Positions 1 through 9,602 of a DNA stretch of 64,000 nucleotides are shown here, in pieces. The DNA is taken from positions 124,001-188,000 of the forward strand of contig JAHLTZ010000031.1 of assembly GCA_025786725.1 (NCBI GenBank), given 5' to 3'. The notes below the pieces were generated by a model. That model was not told the origin of the DNA, did no database searches, and saw nothing but the letters and a program-made list of their open reading frames with translations. Both the position numbers and the translations under genes were made by a program. This DNA is from Syncephalis fuscata (lineage: Eukaryota; Zoopagomycota; Zoopagomycetes; Zoopagales; Piptocephalidaceae). Positions within the stretch are counted from its first letter, which is position 1. Every line of letters begins with the position of its first letter.

Positions 1-681
1 TCAAAAAGAACAATACAGATAAATGAACGCAAATACAATGAGGCAAGCAGAGCAGGCGTCCAGCTGCAAGTCAAACAAAAGAACAATGGCAATGAAATAG
101 ACGAGAAAGAGAAGAAGTAGTAGAAGTTTAGTAACAAGCACCTGACTCGCTATGTAGGTGAGCGTGTGGACGGACAAGCATGCTTGTGTTTCGACTATCT
201 ACAGTGGCAAGGCCTGCCTGTCCATGTTGGTTCCACACTTTGGCCATTCTGCAGAGAAAAAAAGGCGCAACCTGTTCTATTTCGATAGAAATAGCGATAA
301 CTAACCTGTCATACAGCAATAATAGCCATAAGGCAAATAGAACACTGCAGTAATAGTACAGCGAAATGATAATGGTAATAATCACAATTATTATAGTTAT
401 TTGTTTACACTGTTTGTGGTCAATGGTGGTACCATAAAACAAGATGATTTTGACATTTCTTAATTAGTAACATAATAGTTTATTGATCTAGTAAATCAAT
501 AGACAATCCAGGTGATGTCAAAAATACATCTAAACATAAAATGAATGTTTTAGTATTTTGCAGCCAAAAGCTGCTACGTAACTTTGTCCATCTCACTGTC
601 GATCTATTCGCGCCTATTTGTTTATCCTTATTACTATACGACAACGACAGTATCTGTCTGTGCCAATAACTCTGATCAACA
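1..681. other. Intergenic region upstream of CCT8
   Basis: No convincing coding exon is visible on either strand. The short open stretches are AT-driven and hydrophobic without motifs. The last 200 bases or so before the CCT8 start presumably carry its promoter and 5'UTR, but no clear TATA box could be assigned. Confidence 0.5.
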
Positions 682-3068
682 ATGGCTCTTCGCATTCCAA
701 AGGCATCTGCGCCACAACTGTTTAAAGATGGCTACAAGGCAAGTGTAGACGTCATTTGATGGATCGGTTGATTGTTGATTGTTGATTGTAAGCTATGCTT
801 GCAATGCAATCTGTATGATGTCATTAATACGGATCAAATGATCAAACGCGTTTTACTTGCATATGCTATGCGGTCGTGCTGATGCTTGATGATGCGTTGT
901 ACTCTGTACTATATTGTGTTTTACAGTGAGATCTAACGATGTGTTTTTTGATCAGCTATTGCAAGGTGTTGATGAGGCAGTATTGCGCAACATTACTGCT
1001 TGTCGCGAACTGACCGAGATTACTCGAACATCTTTCGGTCCTAATGGTAAGTACAAGCAAGTAGAGAAATAAAGATAACATAAAATAATGGATCAGCGAT
1101 GACGAAACTAACCTATATCCATTGACTATATACTAGGCCGTAATAAAATGGTGATCAACTACTTGGACAAGCTATTTGTTACCAATGATGCTGCCACTAT
1201 TATTCGTGAGCTTGAAGTTGTGCATCCAGCTGCAAAGATGCTTGTTATGGCTAGCCAGCAACAAGAGTCGGAATTGGGCGATGCTACAAACTTGGTGATT
1301 GTTATTGCAGGAGAGTTGCTTAAACAAGCTGAAAATCTACTTCGTATGGGATTGCATCCAAGTGAGATTGTGCAAGGATACGAGATTGCTATCCGCAGAG
1401 CCGATGAGATTCTTCAAGGTAAGTAATAACGTTGGTAAATAGCTTATATATTAATATGTGTTTTACCAACTAATTAACTAATTAATTAATAGAATTATCG
1501 GTTGATGCCGTTACTGAGCCACATAATCGTGATCAGCTATACAAGGCAGTCAAGCCAGTTATTGCTGCTAAACAATATGGACACGAAGAACTATTGACCG
1601 ATCTTGTCGTCGATGCATCAATGACGGTGATGCCTAAGAATGCTAGTAACTTTAGCGTTGACTCAGTACGTGTGGTTAAGGTCATGGGCGCAAATGTATT
1701 CGATTCGCGTGTCATTCGTGGTATGGTTTTTAATCGTGAGCCAGAAGGTAAGACAAATGGATAAAATATAGAACAAGATAAATAAGTTACTTATTGCTGC
1801 TATTTAATTAGGTCATATTCGCAAGGTTGAAGGAGCTAAAGTAGCAGTGTTTTCATGTGCTTTGGATATTTCGCAGACGGAAACAAAAGGCACCGTTCTT
1901 ATTCATAACGCCGAGGAAATGTTGAACTTTTCTCGTGGTGAAGAAGAGTCGCTTGAGCGTGCCATTAAAGAATTGGCCGATGCTGGTGTCAAGGTTGTTG
2001 TATCGGGTAATGCCATCGGTGAATTGGCATTGCACTACTTGAATCGATTCAATATATTCTCTATTAAGGTACCTAGCAAATTCGATCTACGTCGTCTTTG
2101 CCGTGTTTGTGGCGCCACTGCTCTATCCCGTTTGGTAAGTCTTTTGTATAATTTGCTTGACAATGAGTTGTTCATACTTTGATTTACAGGGTGTTCCAAT
2201 GGCCGAGGAAATGGGCTACTGCGAGGTTGTAGAGTCATTGGAGATTGGTGGTGATCGTGTCACTGTATTCCGACAGAGTATGTGCCAAATGATTGATACA
2301 TTTATAAGATGTGCCTAATTGTGATGCTGTAGACGATGAGGCCACTAAGACTGCTACCGTTGTGTTGCGTGGTGCTACGCAGAACCAATTGGAGGATTTG
2401 GAACGTGCAGTCAACGATGGTGTTAACATTATTAAGGCTGTGACCAAAGACGGCCGACTAGTGCCTGGTGCTGGTGCTGCCGAGGCCGAACTATCAAAGC
2501 GTCTATTCGCTTTTGGAGAGGTTAGTGTTGATCACTTTGTTAGGTGTATTATGCTGATATATATATTATTTATTTATTTAGAAAACACCAGGCCTGAATC
2601 AGCATGCTATTAAAAAGTTCGCCGAAGCTTTAGAGGTTGTGCCACGTACATTAGCTGAAAATGCTGGTATGGATGTAAGTATTATTAGAATAAATAGCAT
2701 TATTTATTAATGTTATGATTATTAATTTACTGCTACTAATTACAATAGGCTACCGAGTTTTTGTCTCGCTTGCGTGCTGCACATCATCAATCAGAGAGTG
2801 GCGCTGCTGGTGTGGATATTGAAAGTGAAACACCAGATACGCTAGATGCCGTTGAACACAAGATCTTCGACGTGCTCTCCGTTAAACAATCAGCCTTACA
2901 ATTGGCCGCCAATGCTACGCTAACCATCCTTCGTGTTGATCAGGTATGGTGCCATGCTTCTATTTATGATTCTATTATTAACTGCTTTTGTTATCACAGA
3001 TTATCATGAGCAAACCGGCAGGTGGACCCAAGCCACCTAAGAATTCGCAGAATTGGGATGAAGATTAA
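682..3068 (+). CDS. CCT8: T-complex protein 1 subunit theta (CCT8)
   Basis: Subunit of the cytosolic TRiC/CCT chaperonin, the ATP-driven double ring that folds actin, tubulin and other proteins. Ten exons: 682-738, 956-1046, 1137-1418, 1493-1747, 1812-2134, 2190-2277, 2333-2520, 2582-2674, 2749-2943, 3000-3068. The product runs from [19 protein letters not shown] to a tail ending in [19 protein letters not shown], the diagnostic theta-type C-terminus. Chaperonin hallmarks are visible: [14 protein letters not shown], the ATP-site segment [29 protein letters not shown] (GDGT-like, with Ala for Gly), and [13 protein letters not shown]. Full length for the family, with no frame breaks. Intron 1 (739-955) uses a GC donor (AAG|GCAAGT); only this choice joins exons 1 and 2 in frame. 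Subunit assignment follows from family knowledge of CCT8. Confidence 0.96.
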
Positions 3069-3399
3069 GTTACAGCTTGCGCGCAATAACGCCGTTCTTC
3101 ATGTTCTTTTGGTGTGAACCATGATTGACGGAAAAATAGCGAATAAAATATTCTATGAATTTCATTTCGAGTAAATTAGCATTGAGCATAAATGATTGAT
3201 TTAACAGCCAATTGTGTGCAAAGTGGCCATCATACAGCCATCTAAGCCACATCTGTGCAGCCAGCAGATACGGCAATGCTGTTGCAGTTACTTGAAAGTA
3301 CAAAATGTAAAATAAAATGAAGAAAAAGTATTAATTAGAAATCAGTAAACGTCATTAAAAATGATTATATAATTACCATATTATTTAAAGTCGATAAAT

Positions 3400-4235
3400 T
3401 CCAAGGAATATTAGCTTCTTCGAAACTAATCTGATATAATACCACTCAATCGTAGACTATCAAGAATATGTTTGAAATTCAAAGCATCAGCCAAGTCACA
3501 ATTCCATAATATTGCACCCGTAAAAGTTTTATGAGCTTTCTTACAATTTGGTTTGGGCACCTACAAATAATTTAGATGTTAAAATAAAATATTTATTTTG
3601 TATTAGTCTATAAATTATAGTACCTTATAAGTGTATGACATTTTACTTTTGAATGATTTCTATATTAATACGGAAGTGGATTATCAATTATTTCAAATGT
3701 TTCTAAACTTTGAGCTTGACGAGTGGGACAGGTTTTAGAGCTGTTATACTCATCAATTAAAAACATATTGAACAACTATTTTAAAGCGTATGCTTCAAGC
3801 CAGCACCTCAAATAGGTTCTTGAAACTTTACATGACTTGCAGACTAGTTACCAAATATTAAAGTAGCATTACTATCAAACTTGGATCTAAGCTTATTGAT
3901 AAGCTTTTGGTCAGCTTGCTGTTGTCTAATTTACAAAAATAGCTTTAGTTTTCTGAACAGCCAGTTTTGTTTGATAGAATGTATATTTGTTTGATAAGAG
4001 TAATATGATGCAAGATATTGGCAGACAACAGCACGAACGGCGAGATATTCTTCAAAATTAGATAAATTAACAGACCTGGTTTGACATTGAGATAATAAAT
4101 ATCCTTTTTTTTGAACATTGGAATACTTTGCTTTCAATTCCAATTTGATTCTGCGATACTTTTTGTTCCAGGTATTAAAATGTCTTTGATTTAAGTATAT
4201 CTGTAGGCCATTGGCTCTTGAATGGTGCTGAAGTT
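3400..4235 (-). pseudogene. Decayed Fanzor (TnpB/IS605 OrfB-like RNA-guided nuclease) remnant
   Basis: Read on the minus strand, the C-terminal half of a Fanzor-type protein can be followed across several frames. In order: a basic segment ending NWLFRKLKLF (about 3930), then RQQQADQKLINKLRSKF, then LIFGN-stop-SAS (3844-3852 holds GN-stop where the family has GDW), then FLIDEYNSSKTCP (3724-3765), CHTLIRCPN across a putative intron (3561-3623, GTAC...TTTGTAG), and LWNCDLADALNFKHIL (about 3470-3512), the counterpart of the RuvC-III motif WNRD..AALN. The RuvC-III Asp is kept; the RuvC-I Asp is Asn, followed by a nonsense codon for Trp. Several more stops and frame changes occur, and the N-terminal half is absent. 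Known family facts: Fanzors are eukaryotic homologues of TnpB that cut DNA using an omega-RNA. This copy cannot encode an active enzyme. No flanking inverted repeats were found. Confidence 0.75.
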
Positions 4236-4405
4236 ACAGTGTGTGTATAAGCAAAATAACTTTATAAAAATATAATTATTTAATCATTGAATTACATTAA
4301 CTAATTAATAAGTTGTATAATAATCCATTAGCTAATTTATTTGTAAAGACAATAATGCTAATGAAATAGTGAAATAATGCTAGGCAAAATCTATATCTAG
4401 TTTGC

Positions 4406-6323
4406 TTAACCTCTAACTATTCCATAATACGGAACAAAAACAGCACGGTCTGATGGTGGTTTATCGAATCTTGGATTAGGATCAAGTACAATATACCCGG
4501 AATATGACCATATTTCATTTTTTTGTATATTCATTGGCGTACTGATCCGTATCATAATCTCGCCTTTTTGCTTTGGCTGTAGATTAATAGATCCTGGAAA
4601 GGAAACAGCTGCAGTTACGGGTGATCTTGCCGTCATATCAATAAAATATGATACTTTTGAAGCAGCAGCAGCAGGAATGTGTGAGATTTTATACGAGAGT
4701 GCAGTGTCAAAAAGAAATGTAACTTTGATATGTAAATTCGCTGTATTGTCAAAAGTATTTTTCATATTAATTGAAGATGGTTCAACGTGAATGCGTTCAT
4801 TATCTATTAATTTGTTAAGATTAATCATGCCGGCACCTTGATATTCTACAGAAACGTAGTTATTTAGATTGCTGTGTTTGACTGGAATTGCATTGTTCTG
4901 TAGTATAGTTTTGATAGAGGTAATATCAATCGAGCTATATTGATTATGTTGAACTATCAATGCAGCTGCACCCGCAACATAGGCAACAGCAGCTGATATA
5001 TCGCTAAAATAAGGTTTGCTTATTGTTTTACGAGTGGTAGTAGTGTAGATTTTGTAACTCGGTGCCAAGATGTCAGGATAGAAAGGTGGTATAAGTGGTT
5101 CATTCTGCGGTCCAGCCGTATCGACAGTAACGCCGCCATCCTCAGTGTAGCCATACTTTTCTGCAAAAATATATTTGTATCCAAGCTTATTTCTATAGCC
5201 TTCTTTTATAAACAAAGCATCTTTTTCACTGATATCAAATAAGGGTATATCGCATTTTTGTTTTTTTTTAGAAGGACCGTTTACAATGATAAGCCCAGCC
5301 ATACCTATTGATTTAGCATACTCTAAAAAATAAGGCATTTTTGATTTGTCATACCACACAAGTGCAATGTCTTGTCTTTTAAGCCCAGTATATTCGATTA
5401 ATTTGCCCTTGATATTTTTAGGAATAATATCCGCTTCTTTGTTAAAGTTATAGCTCATGTTTGAACACGAAGAGGTAAACTCAATACACGGCCAGTTGTT
5501 TTTTCCTCAAACCATGTGATAAACGATATTCTTGTTTAAAACCACCAACGCTTAATACAGGAAGGCCTTGATATGAAAATATTGCTGATTTAAAATTATT
5601 AACTGATGCTGCAACAATCATAATCACACCATGTTTTGCAGCATCTTCTATTTCTTGTCCCAGCTGAGTGTCGTATTCATCTACAATGGCAATCTCCGGC
5701 AATACAATGATTTTCATTTGATCCTTGATTGCTGCTTTTATGGCTTGCAACACCAATGAGGTTGAAGTTGGACCTTTGCAGCCAAATACGCGATAGGAGC
5801 CAAAGGTTACCTCGGGGGCAATTCCAGTAAAATAATTGGAGTTTGCAATGACAATTCCGGTCAGCCTTTTACCGCGTTTGGTGCATTCAGATGAATCTTC
5901 AGTTTGATTATGAGCAGTAACTACAAAATTGTGTTTATACTTGAAATTCTCTTTAAACGCAATACTATTCTTATTGGCACCACTGTCAATAATTCCGAGC
6001 TTCACGCCTTTTCCTTTAAACCCCATGTTATGAAGTGCTTGAACACCAGTGGACACGTAGTAAGGTGTTACATAAACTTGTTTGCCAATGATTTTAGAGC
6101 TAATAAAAGGACGAGTGGATCTAGGTATTGTGTAAAAATCATTTTTATATGCTTTGGCACTGTCTACGGTAAAGTGTTGTGTTGAGCAAAATAACAACAA
6201 TGCGATAACCGCCAATTGCTGTGTGGTCTTGCTATCATTATTGTAATTGACTGTTGTATCGAAAATAATTGTATAATTTAATGTGTAAAGAGTGCCAATA
6301 AAAAGTAAATAAAAATGAGACAT
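4406..6323 (-). CDS. Subtilisin-like (S8) protein lacking the catalytic His; frame broken twice
   Basis: An intronless reading frame related to Vpr/C5a-type extracellular subtilases. The N-terminal part (6323-5481, 280 codons) has a hydrophobic signal-like segment near residues 36-47, then GKGVKLGIIDSG with the Asp at about residue 113, and YFTGIAPEVTFGSYRVFGC. The second part (5458-4406) carries a PA-like insert (IKGKLIEYTG, MAGLIIVNG), then PPFYPDILAPSYKIY and SDISAAVAYVAGAAALIVQ, where GTSMA has become DISAA with the Ser kept, and ends in a Fn3-like segment FVPYYGIVRG. The GHGTHVAG motif that supplies the catalytic His reads KRGKRLTG, so proteolysis is not expected. Total about 630 residues, shorter than the usual 850-1000. 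Two single-base losses near 5500 and 5460 would be needed to join the parts; they may be assembly errors or real decay. Confidence 0.7.
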
Positions 6324-7582
6324 TGTATATAAAGTAAAAATATTTTGAATAAGTACCTAGTAGCTATTTTTTAACTTCAAATAAATGCCATAAACGAATG
6401 TTAGCATGTATTAGATGCCATTTTAGATTGCCAAACACTTTAACCCAAGTGTATGTCCAAAATAGTACTAATGATAGTGTGGTAGTTGAATAGAAGTTGC
6501 AGTAATTCAACCGTGATTAAATTTCAATTTTGGTAATCATCGTGCAGTTTTATATTTTTTTAGTTAACTACCTCAATTTCATAAAATTTTATATGACACT
6601 AGTTGGCCGTAATATTACACATTAGTATATATATTTGCAATTATTTTGTAGATTGAATAGCTCAAATTGAACTACAATTTAGGCTATATGTTTTGATGAC
6701 TGATACTACTTACTACACGGCTCCATTTTGATAAAACAAATCTTCAGTTCAATTGCGCAAATATCATTAAATATAGCTACTTTACACCAAATTATAACCA
6801 ATTGCTAAAAAGCTGTTTGTAAAAACAAATTGTATAATAGTGTAAAATGGCCTGTTACAATGGGAGAATAAACATATATAAATAGATTTATTTCTAATGC
6901 AATGTGAGAATGGTCCTCAAAACGATAACTGTCGTACAATGTAAGAGCGTAATACCAATACTAATAGAAACATGTATAGTGTATTCGGCATCGCGGCAAG
7001 TGGTCTACCGAAACCTTTTTATCTTTGTAATACCAAGTGATATAAAAACCAAACTGATTTGTTACAGCAACATAGTAATTGCCAATAAGCTACAAAGAGA
7101 AATAAAATGATTATTGTAACTAACGCAAAATTATTCACTACAATTATTTGTATATTTGAATAGTTTTTTACTTTCCAATAGATATTGAATGTGTTATTTT
7201 GGCACAATTCGGCTTAATCCAAACGAAATTGGTATAGCACCACATCGCCAAGTTGTACATCTTGGCAATAGTAAATCATCTTTATTTTAATATTAAAATA
7301 AATAGATAGCAGTGATAGCGCCATTTTTGTAGTAGTCAATACAGAAACGGCCATCCACTTGCCTGTTTAAAATATCTTCTTTCTGGCTTTCAAATAGTAT
7401 ACAATGTAAGATGTTGTATTGTGCGTCTATCCATTCATAAATTCAATGTCTAACCAATGATTAACAAGCAAAAAAGGACCAAACAACAGACACACGTGCA
7501 AGCAAATTGTATAAAAATACATTTGACTGAGATGGTACGTGATACGCTCATTCCGCTTGACATTTACTAAAGCTCTGCAAAA
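6324..7582. other. AT-rich intergenic region
   Basis: Divergent spacer between the subtilase-like gene (-) and the esterase gene (+). Only short motif-free open stretches on both strands. No RNA gene or repeat of note was recognised. Promoters of both flanking genes presumably lie here. Confidence 0.5.
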
Positions 7583-9602
7583 ATGCGTAAGGCCTCCGCA
7601 ATCATGAGACGAGCTATAAAACGAGCGACTCAATTCGTAACTCCGCAACTGCTATTTTGGCCAACATTTGTGTATTTACTCCACGCTATTGAACAGTCTT
7701 ATCTCTTCTACCTCTTCTTCTTCTTATCCCTCTACTACTCCCGTACCAGTTACTGGCTTGTTATTAGTCTTGTTTTTATCAACTATTTGTTATTAGTAGC
7801 TATATCAGTTGCAATATGCTTTCATATTTTTCTACCAACGAGTCGCTTCGTGCCCGAGCAAAATCCATCTACCATCAGTATATACACGATTCGCCGCTAC
7901 TGAATCCATACCAGATTGATTATACGCAGGATATTCATCGTGGCATGCTAAAAGAAGCATTTGAGGGACTACCAAAGCAACTGAGCGTCTTTAATCCCGC
8001 ACAACTTTTATCAGCAATTATTGATTATTTACGCAATGGCCCAGGCCAACCTAGCTGGTCGTTAAACATGCACATTAGTGTGTTTGTACTGCGTAACCTT
8101 ACCGGTAACGGATTTGGCAATCTTAATACGCTTGAAGATGTCGCTGTTTTTCGCCAGACATTAGCCAAAGTATCTATTGTTCCAACACCTTGGCGGGCCA
8201 AACCGACGGACAAATACCTCAATGATCGCTATCGCTGTGATGCAACTCAAATGCTAGCTCAGTTAAATATTGATGTTTCGCATGTAAGACGGCTTAGCCG
8301 CACAAATGATGCCAAATTAGGTGTTGTTGATACAACACTCGAGCCACTACATGGCGAATGGATTGATTGGGTTGAAAACGATGAAAACAGTGAGAGAAAA
8401 ACAAATGATCGTAACTATTATCATGATGGCCATATGGCCGAATCAAAGCCAGGTGTAATTCTACACTTGCACGGCGGTGCGATGATTATTGGCTCGTCTG
8501 TATCGCATCGACCTTTGGCGTGGCGAATGGCACGGGACACCGGATGCCGTGTTTTCTGTAAGTAAATAATATTATCAAGCAATAGCAATGTATAAATACA
8601 ACTATAATGTATAATTATTTAGTGCCTAATTATCGTCTTGCTCCCGAAGACGCATATCCGTCTGGCCTTATCGACTCACTTGCTACTTATCTATGGCTTA
8701 TCGATGATGGTCCAAATGGTGCAGGCTATAGTCCGGAACAAGTAGTGATTGGCGGCGATAGTGCTGGTAAGTAATTAGTGATAAAATATTATAACCAACA
8801 ACAGTAACTAATAATATTTATTTAGGTGGATGTAAGTAACTTTCTAACACCGTCTACAATTAATTTCAATTCGTTTATACTAATATTTTTACAGGCTTGG
8901 CTATCTCTCTACTATATGTACTTCGTGACAGTTTATTGAAACAACCAGCTGGTGCTTATCTTTGGAGTCCATGGGTAAGTACAATTACTCAGCTATCGTT
9001 TATAAAATTGTATTAAGCTAAAACTAAATATATTTTTTATTAATAGGTGGACATTACTCATTCTTCTAAAAGTTGGATTACAAATGGCCAAAGCGACTAC
9101 TTACCAAATCCACGTACGACAAAGACATGGCGTGCAGATGATCCCGATGGACGAGAACATTTCTATGTACACAAGCGTAGTCTCATGCACTCACCTTATG
9201 TCAGTCCTTTATTTGGAGATGCTGATCGTCTTGCACCTATACTTGTGGTAGGTCGAAATACAGCATAAATGAACCTGTCGATTTTAACTAACTACGATTG
9301 GGAATGAATAGCAAACGGGCGCAGGTGAGCGATTGATCGATGAGTGTTTAGAATATGGTCGAAAAGTGAATACAGCAAATTTAAAAAGTGGTACACCGAC
9401 CCGGCTTGAAATCTACGAGGAAATGCCGCACGTTTGGCAGTTGTTTAGTTTTCTGCCATCGGCTAAGGAAGCAATACGACGTACTGCACTTTTCGTTATT
9501 GATGCCCAACAACGTGCCATCAACAACAACAGCCCCATCAAGATGAAGGGCTGGTGCGTGCAAGTAGATAGTAATGGTCAAGCAAAAACGATTTCGTGGT
9601 AA
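7583..9602 (+). CDS. Membrane-anchored alpha/beta-hydrolase esterase/lipase (HSL family)
   Basis: Likely carboxylic-ester hydrolase of the hormone-sensitive-lipase family. The N-terminus has two hydrophobic spans (about residues 22-78). The core shows LHLHGGAMIIGS (oxyanion-hole HGGG-like), PNYRLAPEDAYPSG, VIGGDSAGGCLA (nucleophile Ser) and EEMPHVWQLF (catalytic His); the Asp is probably in GERLIDECLEY. Exons: 7583-8557 (one missing base, see below), 8623-8766, 8826-8831, 8895-8974, 9047-9247, 9312-9602. The 6-nt exon is needed to give GDSAGG; skipping it gives GDSAGLA. The reading frame from 7583 breaks at a T5 run (7827-7831); restoring one base joins the membrane part to STNESLRARAKSIYHQY. 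If the break is real, translation could start at the ATG at 7816. The substrate is unknown. Confidence 0.82.

What the first reader, a model, noticed from the sequence alone, without database searches (positions are those of the whole stretch)
3400..4235. Fossil Fanzor (eukaryotic TnpB homologue) between CCT8 and a subtilase-like gene
Across several minus-strand frames the C-terminal Fanzor order is preserved: RuvC-I region, LIDE..SSKTCP, zinc-finger Cys pairs, and RuvC-III WNCD..ADALN. The RuvC-I Asp has become Asn, and the following Trp is a stop. This places an RNA-guided-nuclease lineage in this fungus; an active relative may exist elsewhere in the genome. Reading motifs is direct; family assignment is from knowledge of Fanzor/TnpB.
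Basis: partly seen in the sequence, partly recalled or inferred. Interest (0 to 1): 0.8.

Follow-up and report, generated by a model that had tools for sequence, protein, structure and literature searches.

The report
Dead Fanzor fused to subtilase repeats
A broken half of a Fanzor gene (the eukaryotic relative of CRISPR-type nucleases) is not a lone fossil here but one arm of a repeated unit that carries an inactive-looking secreted subtilase gene and sits at many places in the genome of the mycoparasitic fungus Syncephalis fuscata.

Summary
The fossil is real and is Fanzor1: a Rhizopus Fanzor1 matches window 4173-3441 (minus) in three ordered pieces, E 3.6e-20 for the first two. Two details are wrong. 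The 'RuvC-I Asp turned Asn' lies in the GDWSA/GNWSA motif, which has Asn in some Fanzor1; the true RuvC-I lies upstream of the truncation at about 4230 and is absent. One zinc-finger Cys is lost. The piece is not solitary. In this genome (Syncephalis fuscata) 23 of 29 matches of this Fanzor lie within 1.5 kb of one multicopy subtilase family (0.18 expected), with the Fanzor 3' end pointing away from the gene in all 23. Six loci share the window's exact subtilase-Fanzor joint. Two loci have Fanzor arms on both sides as near-perfect inverted repeats, and one interior is inverted between two near-identical contigs. The subtilase family has Arg for the catalytic His (7 of 7 proteins). No intact Fanzor was found. 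Best reading: a dead Fanzor1 that serves only as a dispersed repeat, spread and homogenised by ectopic recombination. Transposition and Fanzor-guided homing are not excluded.

The parts
3205..4230 (-). 5'-truncated Fanzor1 remnant (right-hand arm of the repeat unit), several frame changes and stops; RuvC-I missing
   Evidence: tblastn of Rhizopus Fanzor1; DNA matches 81-92% at 28 other places after dropping two UTR-only matches
3784..4173 (-). segment aligned to Fanzor1 residues 257-384 of P0074, includes the GNWSA-like string (FGN*SASH)
3701..3772 (-). RuvC-II region LIDEYNSSKTCPTRQ (Glu kept; second Cys of the first zinc pair lost)
3561..3623 (-). intron-like stretch GTACTA...CTAAAT...TTTGTAG inside the zinc finger
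   Evidence: read by eye, same layout in the C68 copy L030; inference, no transcript seen
3441..3509 (-). RuvC-III region LWNCDLADALN (Asp kept)
   Evidence: E 0.005 on its own
3205..3440 (-). 3' end of the Fanzor repeat, shared in part or whole by many copies; where an omega-RNA would be expected; no covariation support
4221..4230 (-). joint of subtilase 3' flank and Fanzor, shared by six loci; microhomology CAGCANCATT in the unjoined locus L020
4406..6356 (-). subtilase-family gene, one frameshift near 5481-5506; Arg where the catalytic His should be
   Evidence: window residue read by eye
6357..6690 (-). upstream part of the repeat unit, shared with other copies; left Fanzor arm absent here
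893..3068 (+). CCT8 (T-complex theta), host gene; start not determined exactly; stop about 135 bp before the repeat
   Evidence: three pieces match, one compared with the PDB; last exon and stop read by eye

Best explanation
The window holds a nuclease-dead, 5'-truncated Fanzor1 that long ago landed beside a secreted subtilase-family gene. A short-homology deletion then removed its N-terminal half with RuvC-I. Since then the Fanzor piece has acted only as a dispersed repeat. The subtilase-Fanzor block was copied to many loci, and the Fanzor arms recombine with each other, producing inverted two-armed units, an inverted allele and conversion tracts that keep the Fanzor part more alike than the gene beside it. 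Shown: family, truncation, shared joints, association, opposite orientation on two contigs, patchy identity. Inferred: that duplication and ectopic recombination, not a transposase, did most of the spreading, and that the piece has no coding or guide-RNA role now.
For: Fanzor1 identity. Association: 23 of 29 Fanzor matches lie within 1.5 kb of a subtilase match, 0.18 expected; 15 of 15 on the 3' side are on the gene's strand, 8 of 8 on the 5' side on the other. Same 3' joint in six loci (window, L019, L021, L022/L023, L024, L025) and a second joint on the 5' side in six (L020, L022/L023, L031/L032, L034, L035, L024). L020 has the unjoined sequence and a longer Fanzor about 0.9 kb on, with CAGCANCATT at both places. 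Two-armed loci: arms 657/669 and 702/703 identical, against mostly 80-91% between loci. L022 and L023 have collinear flanks (99.3 and 99.5%) and an inverted interior. Window against L019: 0-1% differences over 5750-4030, but 19-33% upstream of that and 6-16% in the rest of the Fanzor. Six-copy mean distance falls from 0.29 upstream to 0.11-0.14 in most of the Fanzor, while dS between distant subtilase copies is about 0.3-0.7.
Against: Flanks of the window, L019, L020, L024, L025, L029 and L037 share nothing with each other at E 1e-6 (15 of 21 loci given, unit ends set by eye), as expected of a transposon rather than of large segmental duplication. The Fanzor 3' end is more diverged (0.199) than the rest of the Fanzor, so the gradient is not perfect. 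Distances of gene and Fanzor correlate by Pearson/Mantel (r 0.51, p 0.0002) but not by Spearman (0.07, p 0.56), 13 loci, three near-identical duplicates dropped. dS was measured for only three of the six loci that share the joint (window, L019, L024). Eleven of 31 subtilase matches have no Fanzor of this family within 1.5 kb. The inversion could be an assembly error across inverted repeats.
Confidence: 0.6

Rival explanations
1. The unit is a non-autonomous composite DNA transposon: outward-facing Fanzor ends act as long inverted repeats, the subtilase is cargo, and a transposase supplied from elsewhere (for example the MuDr/MULE enzymes present in this genome) moves it, as in Pack-MULEs.
For: Two-armed inverted units, unrelated flanks of seven units, shared inner joints, MULE transposase domains in the genome (14 matches, 10 over the cut-off). 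Fanzor1 of Rhizopus, Phycomyces and Mucor sits in MuDr-type elements without a transposase (PMC3627910, passages read).
Against: No inverted terminal match above shuffles in the five Fanzor copies tested. MULE elements L039/L040 match nothing inside the Fanzor arms of the loci compared, though pieces match near some units (a MULE end at L029 276-515, about 2.2 kb outside; MULE interior upstream of the Fanzor in L001/L005). Ends ragged (about 3205, 3256, 3339). Target duplications not searched systematically. Fanzor arms less diverged than the gene's silent sites.
Confidence: 0.27
2. Fanzor-guided homing: a working Fanzor cut subtilase paralogues lacking the insert and repair copied the Fanzor piece with its flank into them, so gene-family members were converted outward from the Fanzor.
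For: Identity is highest in the Fanzor and falls through the 3' UTR into the gene. The same joint occurs in paralogues with dS of 0.44-0.49 (L024 against window and L019). Protein-less ghost loci whose guide RNAs work exist in Spizellomyces (PMC10432273, passages read).
Against: No intact Fanzor found. No covariation at the 3' end, which is not especially conserved. Ordinary ectopic conversion predicts much the same pattern; window and L019 differ more in the Fanzor than in the neighbouring gene tract, against a Fanzor-centred tract in that pair.
Confidence: 0.08
3. One reading: a solitary Fanzor fossil whose RuvC-I Asp mutated to Asn, next to an unrelated subtilase.
For: The motifs are there in order; the Asn is there, and sister copy L027 has Asp at that site.
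Against: Not solitary and not unrelated to the subtilase. RuvC-I is absent, and the Asn site is another motif, Asn also in Parasitella Fanzor1 and in P0074.
Confidence: 0.03

Closest known systems
Mucorales Fanzor1 (Parasitella parasitica PpFz1, PDB 9cf0; Rhizopus microsporus P0074; Rhizopus delemar P0075)
   Same: Best protein relatives found: L027 frame to PpFz1 E 5.6e-14; L030 read-through to P0074 E 4.9e-32, 28% identity over 97%. Same motif order.
   Different: Every copy looked at here is broken; the window copy lacks everything before about residue 257 including RuvC-I, and has lost a zinc-finger Cys.
Spizellomyces punctatus Fanzor1 and Spu-1 / ghost elements (PMC10432273, passages read; PDB 8gkh)
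   Same: Fanzor1; multicopy; loci without a full nuclease; 11 Fanzor loci with further genes between the ends.
   Different: Spu-1 has defined 30-nt inverted repeats and a shown omega-RNA; here no short terminal repeats or guide RNA could be shown, and the linked gene is a specific subtilase.
Chlamydomonas CRe-1/2/3 Fanzor1 elements of Helitron2 type (PMC3627910, passages read)
   Same: Often 5'-truncated Fanzor1 copies with preserved 3' ends; some with short extra sequence at the 5' side.
   Different: No Helitron Rep found here, though no control rang; a whole gene is attached; inverted two-armed units.
Pack-MULE gene-capturing elements (recalled, no call)
   Same: Gene between long inverted repeats, no transposase of its own.
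   Different: Arms are Fanzor sequence and do not match the two MULE elements compared.

Membership tests
Fanzor1 | significant protein similarity to known Fanzor1 in the right order | tested here: met
Fanzor1 | RuvC-I catalytic Asp | tested here: not met
   absent in the window copy: homology starts at P0074 residue 257, motif at 243; present in L027 (LLLD) and L041 (LIDP)
Fanzor1 | RuvC-II Glu and RuvC-III Asp | tested here: met
   LIDEYNSSK and LWNCD, in different frames
Fanzor1 | C4 zinc finger | tested here: not met
   CPTR for CPTC
Fanzor1 | open reading frame for a nuclease | tested here: not met
   at least three stops plus frame changes within 3400-4240
Fanzor1 | omega-RNA at the 3' end | tested here: inconclusive
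   12 sequences, 12 predicted pairs, one with a two-sided change, energy -2.6; four single folds no better than shuffles; no RNA data
Fanzor1 | RNA-guided DNA cleavage | not testable with these tools
   needs an experiment; the copy has no RuvC-I
MuDr/Pack-MULE-type composite element | long inverted repeats at both ends | tested here: inconclusive
   both arms in C112 and in C109/C13; one arm only in the window
MuDr/Pack-MULE-type composite element | ends like those of a MuDr transposase element | tested here: not met
   L039/L040 match nothing inside the Fanzor arms (two MULE elements only); no inverted termini in five Fanzor copies
MuDr/Pack-MULE-type composite element | 9-bp target duplication | not tested
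   ends too ragged; no empty site available
Helitron | Rep/helicase in the genome | tested here: inconclusive
   no PF14214 match, but no control rang
active subtilase (peptidase S8) | catalytic Asp-His-Ser | tested here: not met
   family matches PF00082 but the His position is Arg in 7 of 7 annotated S. fuscata family proteins that cover it (P0006-P0012 of the ten found); Ser kept in SDISAA

The most novel reading that the evidence does not exclude
A Fanzor1 lineage spread by RNA-guided homing inside a host gene family: insertion beside one secreted pseudo-subtilase gene, then Fanzor-driven repair copied the insert and its flank into paralogues, so that a eukaryotic RNA-guided nuclease shaped the sequence, orientation and number of a mycoparasite's secreted-protein family before dying out.
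Probability: 0.08. Interest if true: 0.85.

Novelty: new variant of a known kind. Interest (0 to 1): 0.52.

Why it matters
The role of Fanzor cleavage is unknown (PMC10432273, passage). A genome in which some two dozen dead Fanzor1 pieces are tied, in the same outward orientation, to one family of secreted pseudo-proteases gives a countable record of how a Fanzor spread and what it left behind. Comparing Syncephalis isolates could separate transposition, homing and passive recombination. It also shows Fanzor1 in Zoopagales, for which a full-text search for Fanzor with Syncephalis gave no paper, and a possible recombination-driven way to shuffle secreted genes in a fungus that lives on other fungi (lifestyle recalled).

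Tried and rejected
Horizontal transfer from Mucorales hosts: considered because the three hits of the Syncephalis query are all Mucorales; not claimed, identity is only 28-42% and Coemansia, also Zoopagomycota (recalled), has Fanzor1 too. Short terminal inverted repeats: none above shuffles in L001, L002, L003, L028, L030. MULE ends as source of the arms: no match inside the arms. Helitron: no Rep, control silent. Guide-RNA structure at the 3' end: no support; Rfam found nothing in window 1-9000. Positive selection on the subtilase: not supported, dN/dS 0.27-0.75 in usable pairs, highest in young pairs; pairs of non-overlapping pieces in that output are meaningless and were ignored. Many independent insertions: unlikely, because two shared joints account for 15 of the 23 linked Fanzor matches (L026 counted with L025). 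A working Fanzor: the fullest copies, L041 and L042 (97% alike over 2.1 kb), keep RuvC-I and RuvC-II in L041 but with stops and frame changes; L042 was not read frame by frame. A systematic target-duplication search was not done.

Full report
What was claimed and what is there. That is correct. The Rhizopus microsporus protein P0074, found from a sister copy, matches the window in three ordered pieces, 4173-3784, 3772-3701 and 3509-3441; joint E 3.6e-20 for the first two and 0.005 for the third. Five shuffled windows gave best E-values of 0.13, 0.39, 0.6, 0.26 and 0.004, so the third piece counts only by order and place. A better kept copy in the same genome (L027, P0001) matches the solved Parasitella parasitica Fanzor 1 (E 5.6e-14) and Spizellomyces Fanzor (E 9.9e-10). 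The window's 100-aa frame alone reaches only E 0.008 with Parasitella and no Pfam family, so the case rests on the multi-piece match and on the DNA relatives.

What was misread. That residue is Asn in P0074 and in Parasitella Fanzor1, and Asp in P0075, in SpuFz1 and in the sister copy L027; the substitution may be real, the motif is another one. RuvC-I is LIDPGRRD at residue 243. It corresponds to LLLD in L027 and, by the alignment, to the IDPN of SpuFz1, whose metal-binding residues are D383, N385, E541 and D606 (PMC10432273, passages read); that correspondence is inference. The window's homology begins at residue 257, so RuvC-I is missing. RuvC-II Glu and RuvC-III Asp remain, one zinc-finger Cys is lost, and a 63-bp intron-like stretch at 3561-3623 explains part of the frame changes (the intron is inference).

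The host. The open subtilase frame of locus L020 is 100% identical, over 97% of the query, to a Syncephalis fuscata protein on a contig of 995,840 bases, the length of C112 in the window's assembly. The genome held is 28.95 Mb in 299 contigs.

It is a repeat, and the subtilase is part of it. DNA search with the window's Fanzor gives 31 matches in the genome, its own included; two of them are only the subtilase UTR part of the query. Comparing loci showed that similarity runs on through the subtilase to about window 6500-6690 and stops there. Of the 29 remaining Fanzor matches, 23 lie within 1.5 kb of one of 31 subtilase matches entered (of 45 rows); 0.18 would be expected by chance. All 15 on the 3' side lie on the gene's strand and all 8 on the 5' side on the other strand, so the Fanzor 3' end points away from the gene in all 23. 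Counts include near-identical contig pairs (C13/C109, C228/C294, C245/C66) and are not independent insertions: the two shared joints below account for 15 of the 23. Six Fanzor matches have no subtilase nearby and eleven of 31 subtilase matches have no Fanzor of this family nearby. The tool calls its counts lower bounds.

Joints. The window's subtilase-Fanzor joint is found with matching sequence in L019, L021, L022/L023, L024 and L025. L020 carries the unjoined state: the subtilase flank continues past that point and a longer Fanzor, with its N-terminal half, follows. CAGCANCATT occurs on both sides, as expected of a microhomology deletion of roughly 0.9 kb (inference). A second shared joint, on the 5' side, links a Fanzor arm cut at about window 4025 to the subtilase upstream region in L020, L022/L023, L031/L032, L034, L035 and, as a remnant, L024. 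L034 and L035, both on C246, also share 619 bp beyond the unit at 96% and so come from one larger duplication.

Two-armed units and inversion. C112 (L020) and C109/C13 (L022/L023) have both arms. The arms are 657/669 and 702/703 identical within a locus, against mostly 80-91% between loci. L022 and L023 share collinear flanks (99.3% and 99.5%) but the interior between the arms runs in opposite directions. Either two haplotypes differ by an inversion or the assembly erred at an inverted repeat.

Divergence. Among six units with the window's joint, mean pairwise distance is 0.29 upstream, 0.17 to 0.33 in the gene, 0.165 in the 3' UTR, 0.11-0.14 in most of the Fanzor and 0.20 at its very end. Window and L019 are 99-100% alike over 5750-4030, 19-33% different upstream of that tract and 6-16% different downstream of it, a patch typical of recent gene conversion. 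Silent divergence in the gene is about 0.3-0.7 between distant copies and 0.02-0.2 within the group L029/L031/L032/L034; of the six loci with the window's joint only window, L019 and L024 were measured (0.19 for window-L019, 0.44-0.49 against L024). Fanzor distances are 0.03-0.06 within L029/L034/L035 and 0.09-0.18 otherwise. So the present Fanzor pieces did not simply descend together with the genes. Distances of gene and Fanzor agree by Mantel test (r 0.51, p 0.0002), driven by the closest pairs, and not by rank (Spearman 0.07, p 0.56; 13 loci, L022, L026 and L032 dropped as duplicates).

The subtilase family. It matches PF00082, but Arg stands where the catalytic His should be in the seven annotated S. 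fuscata proteins that cover the site (P0006-P0012 of ten found), while the Ser is kept within SDISAA. A Syncephalis plumigaleata relative at 31% identity (P0016) lacks both motifs, and another (P0017) has the classical Ser motif and the His. dN/dS of 0.27-0.75 in usable pairs points to past, now partly relaxed, constraint. The window's copy has one frameshift near 5481-5506 and otherwise open frames. Its function is unknown; a secreted pseudoprotease is inference.

Mechanism. The best-supported account is a dead Fanzor1 beside a gene, copied with it and kept alike by ectopic recombination between dispersed copies. A composite transposon is the main rival: flanks of seven units (window, L019, L020, L024, L025, L029, L037) share nothing with each other (15 loci compared) and MULE transposases exist (14 matches, 10 over the cut-off). 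But ends are ragged, no inverted termini were found in five copies, and two MULE elements match nothing inside the arms, although MULE-like pieces lie near some units (L029 276-515, L001/L005 555-728). Fanzor-guided homing would also give Fanzor-centred similarity but lacks any working nuclease or guide-RNA signal, and the window-L019 tract is not centred on the Fanzor.

Search for a living relative. PF07282 gives 40 places, 26 over the cut-off. P0074 gives 33 matches, only three without stops, longest open frame 239 aa. No match covers both RuvC-I and RuvC-II, and none reaches RuvC-III; short exons such as the window's own RuvC-III piece are missed by that search. L041/L042 are the fullest and L041 is broken. 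The Syncephalis read-through query found three proteins in the protein database, all Mucorales. Of 201 relatives of P0074, the 120 listed bear no Syncephalis name; some have no name.

Known or new. Fanzor1 in fungal transposons is known (PMC3627910, PMC10432273, passages read); PMC10711439 does not mention Syncephalis (term search). Searches for Fanzor with Syncephalis gave 0 papers and for Fanzor with subtilisin 4 papers, which look unrelated by title (listing only). The link of Fanzor remnants with a multicopy pseudo-subtilase family appears unreported within those searches.

Noticed in passing
L022 (C109) and L023 (C13): Near-identical loci with the same flanks but the subtilase interior inverted between 99.9% identical Fanzor arms: inversion polymorphism or assembly error.
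   Followed up: partly
L041 (C244:40400-43400) and L042 (C24:575700-578900): Another Fanzor1 family: two 2.1-kb copies 97% alike; L041 keeps RuvC-I and RuvC-II but has stops and frame changes; fairly recent duplication.
   Followed up: partly
L001, L002, L003, L005, L006 (C223, C230, C267, C64, C146): A second, separate Fanzor family with a well-kept zinc finger and RDVNASRN motif in L002 and L003; copies end shortly after a short hairpin (CCCC..GGGG in L002).
   Followed up: partly
L022 535-586, L023 1806-1857; weakly L019 1325-1366: About 50 bp of the subtilase 3' flank recur directly after the Fanzor 3' end (83%; L019 only 42 bp, E 0.017), as if a long target duplication or an unequal exchange; unexplained.
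   Followed up: partly
window 6693-6849: Short dispersed repeat (71-88% identity at 12 other places) next to the unit's left end; perhaps what replaced the left arm.
   Followed up: no
L039 (C90) and L040 (C279): MULE transposase elements of about 2.4 kb with roughly 215-bp inverted ends, 99.3% alike, transposase frame of 243 codons open: perhaps recently active.
   Followed up: no
L027 2852-5278 (C190): A classical subtilase frame of 809 codons with intact HGTH and GTSMATP motifs upstream of a long Fanzor copy and a subtilase-family fragment.
   Followed up: no
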